Assembly: GCF_039134705.1 (NCBI RefSeq)
Contig: NZ_CP146256.1
Coordinates: 3,844,001 to 3,908,000, forward strand
Origin: Kineothrix sp. IPX-CK
GTDB taxonomy: Bacteria; Bacillota; Clostridia; Lachnospirales; Lachnospiraceae
Reading direction: 5' to 3'
Length of the DNA: 64,000 bases
Below the pieces are notes generated by a model. That model made no database searches, had not been told where the DNA came from, and worked only from the letters and a program-made list of their open reading frames with translations. Shown piece by piece: positions 20,994 to 41,679 of the stretch. Within the stretch, counting starts at the first letter, position 1. Each line of letters begins with the position of its first letter. Made by a program: the position numbers and the translations under genes.

Positions 20994-21935
20994 CTATACT
21001 CTTTCACGCCAATAATTCAGTGTTTCCTTTATTGTCTGTTCTAAGGTTATCTCCGGTTCCCAACCAGTAAGTTTCCGCAACTTTGTAGTATCAGCTTCAA
21101 TAATGGGGACATCTACTGGTCTTAATTTATTAGGATCAATTTCTACTTTAATATTCTGATGAGACAATGAAATAATCAATTCCAATATTTCTCTGATGGA
21201 TACCGCATGTCCACTACCAACATTATATGTTTCTCCCGACTTACCTTTTTCAATTAACATGGCATATGCACGCACCACATCTCTAACATCAGTAAAGTCA
21301 CGCTTTGCCTCAAGGTTCCCCACATACATAACAGGCTCCCTTATCCCCTTCTCAATTTCTGCAACTTGCTTGCAAAAGTCAGCCACAACAAATATAGGTG
21401 CCTGCGTCGGCCCTATATGGTTAAAAGCCCTCACCATCATTAATTCCATATCATAAGCTTGAGCATAAATATTTCCAATCATGTTCTGACATACCTTGGT
21501 TGCAGCATATATATTCCCCGGACGAATCATATTTTCCTCCTTAATCGGAGATTCCCCTTCATTAATATGCCCGTATTCTTCTCCTGAACCGATTAAAATA
21601 ACTCTTGGTTTGTAATATAATTCACGCACAGCATCCATGACATTTACACTGCCTTTAATATTTACATCAATTGTCAGGCATGGATTCTTCCAGGCTAATC
21701 CAACAGAGCTTTGTGCCGCAAGATGAAATATATAATCTGGTCTGATTTCAAATAACAGCGACACAATCGCTTCTTTATCCAGAATATCCAAATTATATTC
21801 TTTTACATTACTATTGCTAATTTCTTCGCGTAAAAGCTTTGTAACATACACTTCCATGTTACATTCTTTCTGTAAATATTCCATTAAATAGTTGCCTACA
21901 AAACCGGCCGCCCCTATAATCATTGCTTTTTTCAT
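20994..21935 (-). CDS. rmd: GDP-4-dehydro-6-deoxy-D-mannose reductase
   Basis: This 313-residue extended SDR protein has GAAGFVG at residues 8-14, the HLAAQSSVGLAW strand, the YAATK catalytic pair near 148, and motifs typical of Rmd: RAFNHIGPTQ and GNLEAKRDFTDVRDVVRAY. Rmd reduces the product of Gmd to GDP-D-rhamnose. It directly follows gmd (63 bases), as in S-layer glycan and A-band loci. GDP-L-fucose synthase, the other enzyme using this intermediate, is not seen in the window, which favours D-rhamnose as the product. Confidence 0.87.
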   Translation of the reverse strand: MKKAMIIGAAGFVGNYLMEYLQKECNMEVYVTKLLREEISNSNVKEYNLDILDKEAIVSLLFEIRPDYIFHLAAQSSVGLAWKNPCLTIDVNIKGSVNVMDAVRELYYKPRVILIGSGEEYGHINEGESPIKEENMIRPGNIYAATKVCQNMIGNIYAQAYDMELMMVRAFNHIGPTQAPIFVVADFCKQVAEIEKGIREPVMYVGNLEAKRDFTDVRDVVRAYAMLIEKGKSGETYNVGSGHAVSIREILELIISLSHQNIKVEIDPNKLRPVDVPIIEADTTKLRKLTGWEPEITLEQTIKETLNYWRERV

Positions 21936-21998
21936 TTGCTAATACCATGAAAGGGAATCCTTTCTTAGAATTCCCTTTTCCCTTGTTGTCCTATTTTT

Positions 21999-23030
21999 CT
22001 ACAAGCTATTATATGCAATTTCCTTTTTCACCAATTCCATATCATTATTAACCATACGTTCAACTAACTCATCAAAAGAAATTTTTCTTTCCCATCCTAG
22101 TTCCCTATCGGCTTTAGCAGGATTACCCAATAAAATATCAACTTCTGCCGGCCGGAAAAAGTCCTTATTGATCTTCACGATTTCTTTTCCAGTCGCTTTA
22201 TCTCTTCCAATCTCATCAACTCCTATACCGGACCATTCTACTGCAATTCCTACTTTTGAAAAGGCTATTTCCACAAATTCCCGTACGGTTCTAGTCTCAT
22301 TCGTCGCAATTACGTAATCATCTGCTTGTTCTTGTTGTAACATCAACCACATAGCATATACATAATCTTTGGAATGTCCCCAGTCACGCTTAGAATCCAT
22401 ATTACCTAATTCAATATATTCCTGCACGCCAAGTTTGATTCGAGCTACCGCATCTGTAATCTTACGAGTAACGAATTCTTTTCCCCTACGCTCACTTTCG
22501 TGATTAAAAAGAATGCCACTGCATGCATATAAGCCATAGCTTTCTCTATAATTCTTCGTAATCCAATGTCCATACAACTTCGCCACTCCATAAGGACTTC
22601 TGGGATAAAAGGGAGTTGATTCACATTGCGGAATAGCCTGTACTAATCCGAACATTTCAGAAGTTGATGCCTGATAAAATCTACAAAAGGGTTTTACTGT
22701 GCGGATGGCCTCCAGCATATTCGTTACGCCTAACGCATCGATCTGAGCGGTCGCCAACGGCTGCTCCCAAGATGTAGCGACAAAAGATTGTGCTGCAAGG
22801 TTATAGACCTCATCAGCCTGCGATATTCTCATGGCATTAATTAGCGATACAACATCCGTCATGTCTGCATAAATGAAATGTATTTTATCCTTAATATGCT
22901 CAACGTTTCCATAATCTACTACGGATTTACGGCGCATGATTCCATATACATTATACCCTTTTTCCACCAATAGTTCCGCAAGATAAGAACCGTCCTGCCC
23001 ATTTATTCCTGTTATTAAAGCATTCTTCAT
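21999..23030 (-). CDS. gmd: GDP-mannose 4,6-dehydratase
   Basis: This 343-residue protein has the [14 protein letters not shown] nucleotide-binding motif at residues 8-21, the STSEMFG segment with the active-site Ser/Thr and Glu, [15 protein letters not shown] with the catalytic Tyr and Lys, [10 protein letters not shown], and [16 protein letters not shown]. These are diagnostic of Gmd, which converts GDP-mannose to GDP-4-dehydro-6-deoxy-mannose in the cytoplasm. The substrate can come from ManC-ManA (7664-10012). It is the first gene of a likely gmd-rmd-araC transcript with a promoter at 23093-23065. Confidence 0.94.
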
Positions 23031-23064
23031 TATTATTACCTCAAATTCTTTTAATATTATTAAT

Positions 23065-39547: not shown

Positions 39548-39559
39548 AACTCCCTCCAA

Positions 39560-40873
39560 TTATCTAATAACAATATCCTTATTATCATATTCTAAAATCC
39601 TAGTATCTGCATCTAATTCTATTAAAGCAATGTTAAAGCCTTCATTTTCAACAAATATCGTCTGACAGTTATGAATTCGCGAATGAACCACGTGATTCTC
39701 CTGTGTCCCTGCCGCTACCGCCAATGTAATAAGGTATTCACCTTTGCACATTCTAGGCAACTTCAAAGAAAATAAAGCTTCATATACTTTATTGTTACTT
39801 ACTTGTCCGATGTATTTTTTTTCCATAAAGTTATTAATTCCAAAGACTCTAACACCTCTTAAATTCTCTAGTTCAAATCCGAAAATTACATGTTCTAAGC
39901 TTTCATGAAACCTAGCTACAATGCCAAAGGAATACTCCTCCTCCACTTTTAACAGCTTAGATTCTTTTCCATTTTTATCCTTGATGTAAAAAGATAATAT
40001 TTCCACTTTTCCAGTCCCTGTAATGGCTTCTGCTTTTTGAATGTCCAACCTGGGGAAACGCTTAATCATACTATTTGCTTCAATTCCACTAGTTTCATTA
40101 TGCATTTTTATCTGAGAAAGCAACTTTTCATTTTCCGCATTAGTTCTTTCAATCTGTGCACTCATGTAACGCTCACACACAGCATTAGCCTCGCCGACTT
40201 CCCTAAGAACTCCTTTATCCAGCCAGACTACTCTCGAACACATTTTTTTAACGGATACTATATCATGAGAAACAAACAAAATAGTAGTTCCACTCTGTTT
40301 AATCTCCTCTAACTTATGGAAACATTTAGCTTGAAAGAAAGCATCCCCCACCGCTAACGCTTCATCTATAATCAGTATTTCCGGTTCAACATTAATAGCC
40401 AATGCAAACGCCAGTCGCACCAACATTCCCGAAGAATAGGTCTTAACCGGTTGATATACGAAATCTCCTATATCTGCAAATTTTAGAATTTCTTCCTTTT
40501 TGGCGTCCATTTCCTCCCTTGTGTAGCCTAAAATCGAGCCATTCATATATATGTTTTCAATACCAGTATATTCCTCATCAAAACCTGCTCCAAGTTCCAA
40601 GAGCGCAGATACTTTTCCATTTACAAATACATTTCCTTCAGTTTGCTTTAATACTCCGGTAATAATCTTTAATATTGTAGATTTTCCAGATCCGTTTACT
40701 CCAATAATTCCAACGGTCTCACCTGATTCTATGCTAAAGCTAATATCATTTAGAGCATAAAAGGGTCTATGATAAATCTTATGTCCGGGACGAATTGCTT
40801 CTTTCAATCGGTCCGACGGTCTATCATATATTCTATAAACTTTTGAAACATTTTCAACCTGTATTGCATTCAT
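39560..40873 (-). CDS. wzt: Polysaccharide ABC exporter ATPase with C-terminal carbohydrate-binding-type domain (Wzt-like)
   Basis: This 437-residue protein has Walker A GVNGSGKST near 57, the signature YSSGMLVRLAFA near 143 and Walker B ILIIDEALAVGD near 165, preceded by the RLKEAIRPGHKIYHRPFYALNDIS segment of TagH/Wzt-type ATPases. The extra C-terminal 190 residues (about 245-437) are beta-rich and resemble the Wzt carbohydrate-binding domain that recognises the finished, capped chain terminus in O9a-type systems. With the permease it would export a completed undecaprenyl-linked polymer. It sits between the permease and the large methyltransferase protein, the natural source of such a cap. 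Confidence 0.9.
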   Translation of the reverse strand: MNAIQVENVSKVYRIYDRPSDRLKEAIRPGHKIYHRPFYALNDISFSIESGETVGIIGVNGSGKSTILKIITGVLKQTEGNVFVNGKVSALLELGAGFDEEYTGIENIYMNGSILGYTREEMDAKKEEILKFADIGDFVYQPVKTYSSGMLVRLAFALAINVEPEILIIDEALAVGDAFFQAKCFHKLEEIKQSGTTILFVSHDIVSVKKMCSRVVWLDKGVLREVGEANAVCERYMSAQIERTNAENEKLLSQIKMHNETSGIEANSMIKRFPRLDIQKAEAITGTGKVEILSFYIKDKNGKESKLLKVEEEYSFGIVARFHESLEHVIFGFELENLRGVRVFGINNFMEKKYIGQVSNNKVYEALFSLKLPRMCKGEYLITLAVAAGTQENHVVHSRIHNCQTIFVENEGFNIALIELDADTRILEYDNKDIVIR

Positions 40874-40887
40874 GACAGCATATTCTC

Positions 40888-41679
40888 CTATAAAACATCC
40901 GCAAAATGTGGCTCCATCTTTTTAAATAGCTTAACTCCGCCCATAAATATAACTAATGTAAAAATCCAGAAATACAAAGCCATATATGGCTTTGTCCAAA
41001 AGCCCACATGATATACAAAACAATCTCTAAAACCATCTACAATATATGTAAACGGATTAAGGCGAAGTATCCAATGAATTTCTTCCGGCATTCTTGAAAT
41101 ATCCCACATTATGGGAGCAATCCAAAAACCAAACTGCAAGAAGATACTTACTATTTGATTGGTGTCCTTTACAAATACATTAATCGCCGAGGTCAAATAG
41201 ACAAGACCTGTCACCAGCATAATATTACATATAAGATAATAAATAGTTTGCAGCCACCAAACAGAAGGACTTTCTCCAAAGATCAGAAATACTAACATTA
41301 AAATAAAAATAAAAATAAAATGAATAAATAATGAAGATACAACTTTTATAAGCGGCAAAATATCGATTCTAAATACCATTTTTTTAACCAGATGTTTATA
41401 AGAGGACAAAGTAGATACCCCGCTTTGTAGTGTATCATTAAAGAAAAACCATGGGATAATTCCCGGCATAAGCCATAATACATATGGCATATTTTCTACT
41501 GGATTACTTTTAAATCCAATTTGAAAAACAAAATAATATATCACGATACTTACAATTGGTTGCATAAAAATCCAAAAAACTCCTAAATATGAACCAATAA
41601 ACCTCTTTTTAAAATCAGATGCTGCCAACGTTAAAATTAGTTGCCTTCTATTTATAATATCTTTTATTTGTCTTATCAT
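40888..41679 (-). CDS. wzm: Polysaccharide ABC exporter permease (Wzm/TagG-like)
   Basis: This 263-residue ABC-2 type permease has six membrane helices. The amphipathic start (RQIKDIINRRQLILTLAASDFKKRFIGSYLGVFW) and the later FGFWIAPIMWDISRMPEEIHWILRLNPFTYIVDGFRD segment are typical of Wzm/TagG/RfbA permeases. It is the first gene of the long minus-strand run 41679 to 30027 and lies 14 bases upstream of wzt. Confidence 0.92.
   Translation of the reverse strand: MIRQIKDIINRRQLILTLAASDFKKRFIGSYLGVFWIFMQPIVSIVIYYFVFQIGFKSNPVENMPYVLWLMPGIIPWFFFNDTLQSGVSTLSSYKHLVKKMVFRIDILPLIKVVSSLFIHFIFIFILMLVFLIFGESPSVWWLQTIYYLICNIMLVTGLVYLTSAINVFVKDTNQIVSIFLQFGFWIAPIMWDISRMPEEIHWILRLNPFTYIVDGFRDCFVYHVGFWTKPYMALYFWIFTLVIFMGGVKLFKKMEPHFADVL

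What the first reader, a model, noticed from the sequence alone, without database searches (positions are those of the whole stretch)
20994..41679. Apparent ABC-exported D-rhamnose glycan system with a five-domain assembly protein
gmd and rmd point to GDP-D-rhamnose, with ManC-ManA as the GDP-mannose source. The same block has Wzm, a Wzt with a C-terminal domain of about 190 residues, and a 1360-residue protein with methyltransferase, methyltransferase, coiled-coil, GT2 and GT4 domains. Known parallels are WsaE in S-layer glycan loci and WbdD/Wzt-C in O9a systems, where a cap plus coiled-coil length ruler licenses export. Having polymerising and putative capping domains plus the ruler in one chain in a Clostridium-like genome is unusual and may be a new variant.
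Basis: partly seen in the sequence, partly recalled or inferred. Interest (0 to 1): 0.75.

Follow-up and report, generated by a model that had tools for sequence, protein, structure and literature searches.

The report
Fused cap-and-polymerase glycan assembly protein
A clostridia-type bacterium carries a locus that builds, probably caps, and exports a surface sugar chain with one large fused enzyme; the layout is a variant of a known machine, but its transporter has, at the cap-reading site, a residue otherwise seen mainly with phosphate-type caps rather than methyl caps.

Summary
In detail: wzm, wzt with a Wzt_C carbohydrate-binding domain, gmd, rmd and a 1364-residue protein with two methyltransferase-like domains, a polar linker, GT2 and GT4. 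ManC-ManA lies outside the interval (7664-10012). The kind is known: WsaE, K. pneumoniae O7 ORF6 and WbbB already join polymerase and terminator in one chain. Of 111 distinct core-bearing loci collected here (window included), 14 have a methyltransferase head on the GT2-GT4 core and 66 a kinase-type head. (1) The tandem MT1-MT2 head was seen only here and, apparently unfused, in one of 15 other same-genus genomes. (2) The window linker shows no heptad signal, while ten relatives do; a coiled-coil ruler is unproven here. (3) At the Wzt position aligned with the methyl-stacking Trp362 of A. aeolicus, kinase-head loci carry Arg (56 of 56), as does E. coli O9a. Methyltransferase-only systems mostly carry Trp or another aromatic or His, including an O8-annotated E. 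coli. The window and four relatives carry Arg without a kinase domain, so its cap may not be a plain methyl ether. D-rhamnose rests on gene position only (rmd homologue in 1 of 12 related genomes). Structure prediction never ran.

The parts
40888..41679 (-). wzm, ABC permease
   Evidence: ABC2_membrane 64.4 bits
39560..40873 (-). wzt, ATPase with C-terminal carbohydrate-binding domain; reader residue Arg399
   Evidence: ABC_tran and Wzt_C; CTD profile matches five PDB sequences at E<=1: 2r5o (2.7e-6; that it is E. coli O9a Wzt is recalled) and the A. aeolicus chains 6o14, 8dky, 8dku, 7k2t (1.7e-4 to 1e-3); Arg399
35465..39559 (-). 1364-aa assembly protein: zinc-ribbon MT1 (about 1-260), MT2 (about 263-500), polar linker (about 498-640), GT2 (about 725-1000), GT4 (about 1000-1364)
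34294..35460 (-). AlgX-like SGNH acetyltransferase, likely O-acylation of the exported glycan (inferred)
   Evidence: ALGX 45.9 bits; an AlgX-like gene also lies by the core in L129 and L126
32866..34278 (-). MBOAT O-acyltransferase
   Evidence: MBOAT 114.6 bits; MBOAT also by the core in L110 and L129
26405..27364 (-). GT2 glycosyltransferase
   Evidence: Glycos_transf_2 88.5 bits
21999..23030 (-). gmd, GDP-mannose 4,6-dehydratase
   Evidence: TIGR01472 467.6 bits over cut-off 415
20994..21935 (-). rmd, GDP-6-deoxy-D-lyxo-4-hexulose reductase (GDP-D-rhamnose)
   Evidence: 2pk3 278.6 bits, next 176
7664..10012 (-). ManC-ManA fusion, GDP-mannose supply (outside the given interval)
   Evidence: NTP_transferase, MannoseP_isomer and PMI_typeI_cat

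Best explanation
The locus makes a lipid-linked polysaccharide on the cytoplasmic face, perhaps containing D-rhamnose from GDP-mannose via Gmd and Rmd. The 1364-aa protein elongates the chain with its GT2 and GT4 modules. Its N-terminal head, in which MT2 is the intact SAM enzyme and MT1 a divergent partner, modifies the growing end. This stops elongation and makes the mark that the Wzt C-terminal domain binds, after which Wzm-Wzt exports the chain; MBOAT and AlgX then acylate it outside. Shown by sequence: the domains, catalytic motifs, gene order and CBD homology. Inferred: substrate sugars, order of events, cap chemistry, acylation. Not shown: that the linker is a length-setting coiled coil. 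It works like WsaE, with a doubled methyltransferase head.
For: Domains. GT catalytic motifs invariant in a 16-sequence core alignment. The same core lies near wzt across the family and in named genomes. 14 of 111 distinct core-bearing loci, window included, carry a methyltransferase head. The same core carries other heads: kinase or MT-kinase 66, sulfotransferase-type 7 (Pfam support in 4), pyruvyltransferase 3. On a quick core tree of 109 rows the head label changes at least 22 times, and a 3-row group with 97% local support joins MT, pyruvyltransferase and headless cores, as expected of exchangeable terminators. Wzt CTD resembles the two solved cap readers. Precedents: WsaE (PMC2943079, passages), O7 ORF6 (PMC11231755, sections 10, 11 part 1 and 13 part 1), cap reading by Wzt (PMC9445017, passages).
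Against: Wzt Arg399 is the residue of kinase-head systems, yet no kinase domain is in the head. The linker lacks heptad periodicity. Rmd homologue in only 1 of 12 related genomes tested. Wzt CTD does not track the head beyond what the NBD does (partial correlation -0.26, although given core identity it is 0.34). MT1 lacks canonical motif I. None of the 46 PDB sequences matched by the whole protein at E<=0.001 is named WbdD or WbbB.
Confidence: 0.68

Rival explanations
1. The cap is methyl-phosphate or another anionic group: a kinase encoded elsewhere phosphorylates the chain end and the MT head methylates it, and Arg399 reads the charge.
For: The genome holds an MT-kinase gene at its second ABC locus. 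4 of 5 Arg-type MT genomes hold such a kinase against 0 of 5 Trp-type.
Against: The kinase is found in 104 of 200 family genomes, so 4 of 5 means little, and one of the four (L110's genome) shows only two partial matches of about 44 bits. No separate kinase match was flagged in the fetched stretches of L110, L123, L128 and L129. The Arg-type MT CTDs share a stretch of the form A-x-A-x-G-x-Q with the Trp type.
Confidence: 0.2
2. The fused protein uses dTDP-L-rhamnose or another sugar, and gmd-rmd serve a different glycan of the same block.
For: WsaE and O7 ORF6 use dTDP-rhamnose (PMC3898925 passages; PMC11231755 section 10). An RmlC-like gene lies in the fetched stretch of 17 of 35 kinase-head loci. 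A nucleotidyl transferase and a dehydratase of the RmlA and RmlB kind stand at the genome's second ABC locus (the Rml names are mine). Rmd absent at E<=1e-40 from 11 of 12 related genomes.
Against: gmd and rmd stand in the same co-directional low-GC block. Four of five Trp-type MT loci, though only one of four other Arg-type, carry GDP-manno-type sugar genes. A. aeolicus exports a D-rhamnose polymer with a CBD transporter (PMC9445017, passages).
Confidence: 0.3
3. MT1 and MT2 decorate the sugar or lipid rather than terminate the chain; chain length is set by transporter-to-synthase stoichiometry, as in K. pneumoniae O2a.
For: No heptad signal in the linker. WsaE methylation was chain-length independent in vitro (PMC2943079, passage). 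O1 terminal pyruvylation does not set length, and O2a lengths follow stoichiometry (PMC11231755, passage).
Against: The window Wzt keeps a CBD of the cap-reading family; ten relatives with the same layout have strong heptads.
Confidence: 0.2

Closest known systems
WsaE of Geobacillus stearothermophilus (S-layer glycan)
   Same: One chain with an N-terminal methyltransferase and two glycosyltransferase domains; wzm and wzt directly upstream (PMC2943079, passages)
   Different: Window has an extra zinc-ribbon MT1 and a gmd-rmd pair in the block; no direct sequence comparison, as the WsaE sequence was not held
K. pneumoniae O7 ORF6 (MT-kinase-coiled coil-GT2-GT2)
   Same: Terminator head, linker and two GT modules in one chain (PMC11231755, sections)
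   Different: Window head has no kinase, its second GT is GT4, and it has two methyltransferase-like domains
K. pneumoniae O12 WbbB (Kdo terminator fused to polymerase)
   Same: Polymerisation and termination in one chain (PMC11231755)
   Different: Terminator is a glycosyltransferase (GT99); the two GT99 loci read here have Gln at the Wzt reader column
E. coli O9a and O8 WbdD with Wzt-C
   Same: Methyltransferase terminator and CBD-bearing Wzt; best solved match of the window CTD is 2r5o
   Different: WbdD is separate from the polymerase; O9a WbdD has a kinase; an O8-annotated E. coli Wzt has Trp where the window has Arg
Aquifex aeolicus Wzm-Wzt (rhamnose-rich polymer, 3-O-methyl cap)
   Same: D-rhamnose-containing polymer and CBD fold (PMC9445017, passages); NBD 269 bits to 8dku
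   Different: Trp362 that stacks on the methyl is Arg in the window

Membership tests
WsaE-type fused assembly protein | N-terminal methyltransferase domain with intact SAM motif | tested here: met
   MT2: Methyltransf_11 over its full length at 302-398, motif VLDAACGEGYG at about 301-311
WsaE-type fused assembly protein | Two C-terminal glycosyltransferase domains with catalytic residues | tested here: met
   GT2 and GT4 hits; NNDT, EDxD and GAGxKGKxxE invariant in 16 cores
WsaE-type fused assembly protein | Gene directly downstream of wzm-wzt | tested here: met
   Gaps 14 and 0 bp
WsaE-type fused assembly protein | dTDP-L-rhamnose donor and 2-O-methyl cap | not testable with these tools
   gmd-rmd in the block hint at GDP-D-rhamnose; no biochemistry
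WsaE-type fused assembly protein | Sequence homology to WsaE itself | not tested
   WsaE sequence not held; Paenibacillus loci of the same layout used instead
WbdD / O7 ORF6 methyl-phosphate terminator | Kinase domain in the terminator protein | tested here: not met
   No kinase family in Pfam at E<=0.001 and no match to the kinase-like model at E<=0.001
WbdD / O7 ORF6 methyl-phosphate terminator | Coiled-coil ruler between terminator and polymerase | tested here: inconclusive
   Polar linker, but heptad z 0.2, reached by 193 of 500 shuffles; ten relatives z 3.2-10.1; no trained predictor or model available
Capped ABC export with Wzt CBD | Wzt_C carbohydrate-binding domain | tested here: met
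   91.6 bits, cut-off 30.4; PDB matches
Methyl-ether cap reader (A. aeolicus, O8) | Trp at the methyl-stacking position | tested here: not met
   Arg399 in the window; Trp in A. aeolicus and O8-annotated E. coli
GDP-D-rhamnose pathway | Gmd and Rmd | tested here: met

The most novel reading that the evidence does not exclude
The GT2-GT4 core is a chassis on which terminator heads are swapped (methyl, methyl-phosphate, sulfate, pyruvate), and one position of the Wzt carbohydrate-binding domain reports the cap: an aromatic or His for methyl ethers, Arg for charged caps. By this code the window, with a doubled methyltransferase head and an Arg reader, makes a cap of a kind not yet described: charged, or read without stacking on the methyl. 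The sulfotransferase and pyruvyltransferase heads would likewise be new ruler-type terminators.
Probability: 0.3. Interest if true: 0.72.

Novelty: new variant of a known kind. Interest (0 to 1): 0.55.

Why it matters
It also gives a natural series, with the same polymerase core and different heads and linker lengths, for testing how chain end, chain length and export are coupled.

Tried and rejected
Idea: Wzt CTD and head type coevolve as a pair. On 10 MT-head loci the CTD-head correlation is 0.46; given core identity 0.34 (6 of 5000 permutations reach it), but given NBD identity -0.26. In a pooled regression of 75 loci the same-head term is large (15.2, 0 of 2000 permutations), and MT-MT pairs are nearer in CTD (29.1%) than MT-kinase pairs (20.7%) at equal NBD and core identity. 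However, the MT loci fall into two CTD groups that are only 16-26% alike (L178 aside). Not taken as general evidence; only the single-residue pattern stands.

Idea: an in-trans kinase explains the Arg reader. 4 of 5 Arg-type MT genomes have one, but so do 104 of 200 family genomes. Not telling.

Idea: gmd-rmd belong functionally to this core. Rmd at E<=1e-40 in 1 of 12 genomes; GDP-manno-type genes in 1 of 4 other Arg-type and 4 of 5 Trp-type MT loci. Left open.

Kinase-like X domain: no convincing PDB or Pfam match. I call it a kinase from the invariant K, D..N, D pattern and from the O7 ORF6 paper, not from a fold.

Coiled coil: a lenient heptad scan flagged the linker in every headed locus, but also stretches in most GT cores, so I used a periodicity test. 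Its intervals were mostly taken from that scan (L115 and L183 set by hand), which favours heptad-rich stretches in relatives and window alike; the control segments were slightly positive too (Stouffer 2.5 against 18.2). A simpler test on the window alone also failed (148 of 1000 shuffles reach it).

Counting limits: of 121 core-bearing rows, 10 with identical last 500 residues were dropped, and loci under the score thresholds before that. PYR, GT and MT? heads, and L117 and L118 as MT-kinase (weak model scores), were assigned by hand. SULF was assigned by a sequence motif: Pfam agrees for L148, L150, L155 and L172 and finds nothing of the kind at E<=0.001 for L127, L167 and L186. L106 and L169 ('none') begin inside the core, so they are truncated; L169 is one of the rows behind the 22 changes. 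In one search the three MT? loci show Asn, Tyr and Arg, and PYR and GT CTDs align poorly.

Sampling limits: the ten regions were picked by me for variety, nine from 206 plasmid records (40 listed) and one from 327 E. coli records. L215's neighbour was read as a methyltransferase by eye; Pfam finds none.

On print: the listings of searches showed no title or abstract start announcing the Trp/Arg pattern or a sulfotransferase terminator of this kind; I did not read those papers through, subscription papers are mostly not held, and PMC6791312 (O9a CBM) is not held. Most of PMC9445017 and PMC11231755 outside the named passages and sections was not read.
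Full report
The observation. All named parts exist. Wzt carries Wzt_C at 91.6 bits against a 30.4 cut-off, and the large protein carries Methyltransf_11 (two stretches), Glycos_transf_2 and Glyco_trans_1_4. Gmd passes its NCBIfam cut-off. The best solved match of rmd is 2pk3, 100 bits ahead of the next. ManC-ManA is real but lies at 7664-10012, outside the interval. The genes from wzm down to the CDP-glucose dehydratase gene form one minus-strand run in a low-GC block (0.26-0.37). 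Gaps run from -11 to 90 bp apart from one of 556 bp, and terminator-like sites in 20000-39900 are no more than chance (4 found, 6.5 expected).

The large protein. MT2 has an intact SAM motif. MT1 belongs to a zinc-ribbon family whose motif I is altered to a YNT..G.IH-type stretch, and it matches only the second half of the Pfam profile, so its catalysis is uncertain. GT2 and GT4 catalytic residues are invariant over 16 cores. The linker is polar, and there is no proline from 402 to 639. It has no heptad periodicity (z 0.2, reached by 193 of 500 shuffles), while ten relatives score z 3.2 to 10.1; core-segment controls gave -0.4 to 1.6 (the intervals came mostly from a heptad scan, see Tried and rejected). 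No 42-residue sub-window of the window linker stands out; the best is reached by 76 of 1000 shuffles.

How unusual is it? The GT2-GT4 core occurs at E<=1e-50 in 43 of 397 family genomes, the window's included. In 40 stretches read from such genomes, 37 hold a Wzt-like ORF. After removing duplicates, 111 core-bearing loci, window included, divide into 35 kinase heads, 31 MT-kinase heads, 14 MT heads, 11 without a head, 7 sulfotransferase-type by motif, 4 GT, 3 pyruvyltransferase, 3 uncertain MT and 3 other. Pfam supports the pyruvyltransferase heads and 4 of the 7 sulfotransferase heads. Ten of the 14 MT-head loci have a wzt within 4 kb. In the phylum sample, 11 of 398 genomes, window included, match the MT1-MT2-linker query at E<=1e-30, some in ORFs of 1210-1336 aa. 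So fusion of head and polymerase is common, and fused terminator-polymerases are published: WsaE (PMC2943079, passages), WbbB and O7 ORF6 (PMC11231755, sections and passages).

What is particular here. The MT1-MT2 tandem was found only in the window and in G001, among 16 same-genus genomes. MT1 itself matched 2 of 397 family genomes, the window's own and one partial. Among the fetched loci, MT1 relatives appear only as separate genes or in G001. In G001 the pieces lie on two contigs: a wzt followed by MT1, and MT-linker ORFs beside a separate GT2. This looks like an unfused version, with the contig link inferred. MT1-like stand-alone genes lie near the core in L162 and L171.

Head exchange. 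On a FastTree core tree of 109 rows the head label changes at least 22 times (six rows unlabelled, one labelled row truncated). A group with 97% local support joins L110 (MT), L111 (pyruvyltransferase) and L163 (no head), and one of seven rows at 99% holds these and the window. This supports heads as interchangeable modules. The tree is quick, with many open forks and some long branches.

The cap reader. In A. aeolicus Wzt, Trp362 stacks on the 3-O-methyl cap, and its Leu mutant loses binding (PMC9445017, passages). The aligned column is Arg in 32 of 32 kinase and 24 of 24 MT-kinase loci, and in MT heads 5 Arg and 5 Trp (loci with a Wzt of 400 aa or more). 2r5o shows Arg there; that it is the E. 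coli O9a domain is recalled, and that O9a is terminated by methyl-phosphate is in PMC11231755. An E. coli Wzt annotated as O8 family, beside a methyltransferase-only gene, shows Trp; PMC9445017 calls the A. aeolicus polymer and cap analogous to O8. In ten further transporters plus L207 and L208, the column is Trp in L207, L208, L209, L212, L214 and L215; His in L211; Tyr in L216; Phe in L217; Arg in L213, which has an MT and a weak kinase match (E 3.7e-9); Gln in L210 and L218, both GT99. Methyltransferase domains by Pfam: L207, L211, L212, L213, L214, L216 and L217. L215's was read by eye only; L208 and L209 have no clear head. L172, the one sulfotransferase-head locus with such a Wzt, has Arg. 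Profiles agree: Trp-type MT CTDs (with L163) match A. aeolicus at 4.5e-20 and 2r5o at 7.8e-6; kinase-type match 2r5o at 4e-11 and A. aeolicus at 7.3e-8; the window group matches 2r5o at 2.7e-6 and A. aeolicus at 1.7e-4. The window and four relatives (L110, L123, L128, L129) are the exceptions: MT head, Arg reader. Either the cap is charged through another enzyme, or Arg serves another contact. The kinase-elsewhere idea gains no weight from genome content.

Sugar. Rmd and Gmd point to GDP-D-rhamnose, and A. aeolicus offers a precedent for D-rhamnose polymers with a CBD transporter. But rmd is rare among related genomes (1 of 12), and the characterised fused proteins use dTDP-rhamnose. I give D-rhamnose as donor about even odds.

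Second locus. So one cell seems to carry two capped-export systems with different heads.

Verdict. Real, well-formed, of a known kind, with a doubled methyltransferase head and a mismatch between head and reader that deserves an experiment. No structure was predicted because the service was busy throughout.

Noticed in passing
   Followed up: partly
   Followed up: partly
L033/L116, L111, L122: Polysaccharide pyruvyltransferase heads fused to the same core; L122 also has an FrhB-type domain in front, like the separate FrhB-like gene at window 23517-24761.
   Followed up: no
L039 and L040 (G001): Same-genus relative with an apparently unfused MT1-MT2-linker protein, a separate GT2 and a second MT-linker protein, split over two contigs.
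   Followed up: partly
window 10474-12459 (+): Collagen-repeat protein (Pfam Collagen, 155.4 bits) next to an IS66 transposase at 12481-14094.
   Followed up: no
window 1046-2617 (-): One ORF with two Glyco_tran_WecG domains in tandem (423.9 bits, two stretches).
   Followed up: no
window 51410-54233 (-): A second MBOAT gene (52743-54233) with a 440-aa neighbour without a Pfam match, in the adjoining glycan gene block.
   Followed up: no
L163 8353-11929: Core with no head and hardly any linker, yet its Wzt reader residue is Trp.
   Followed up: no
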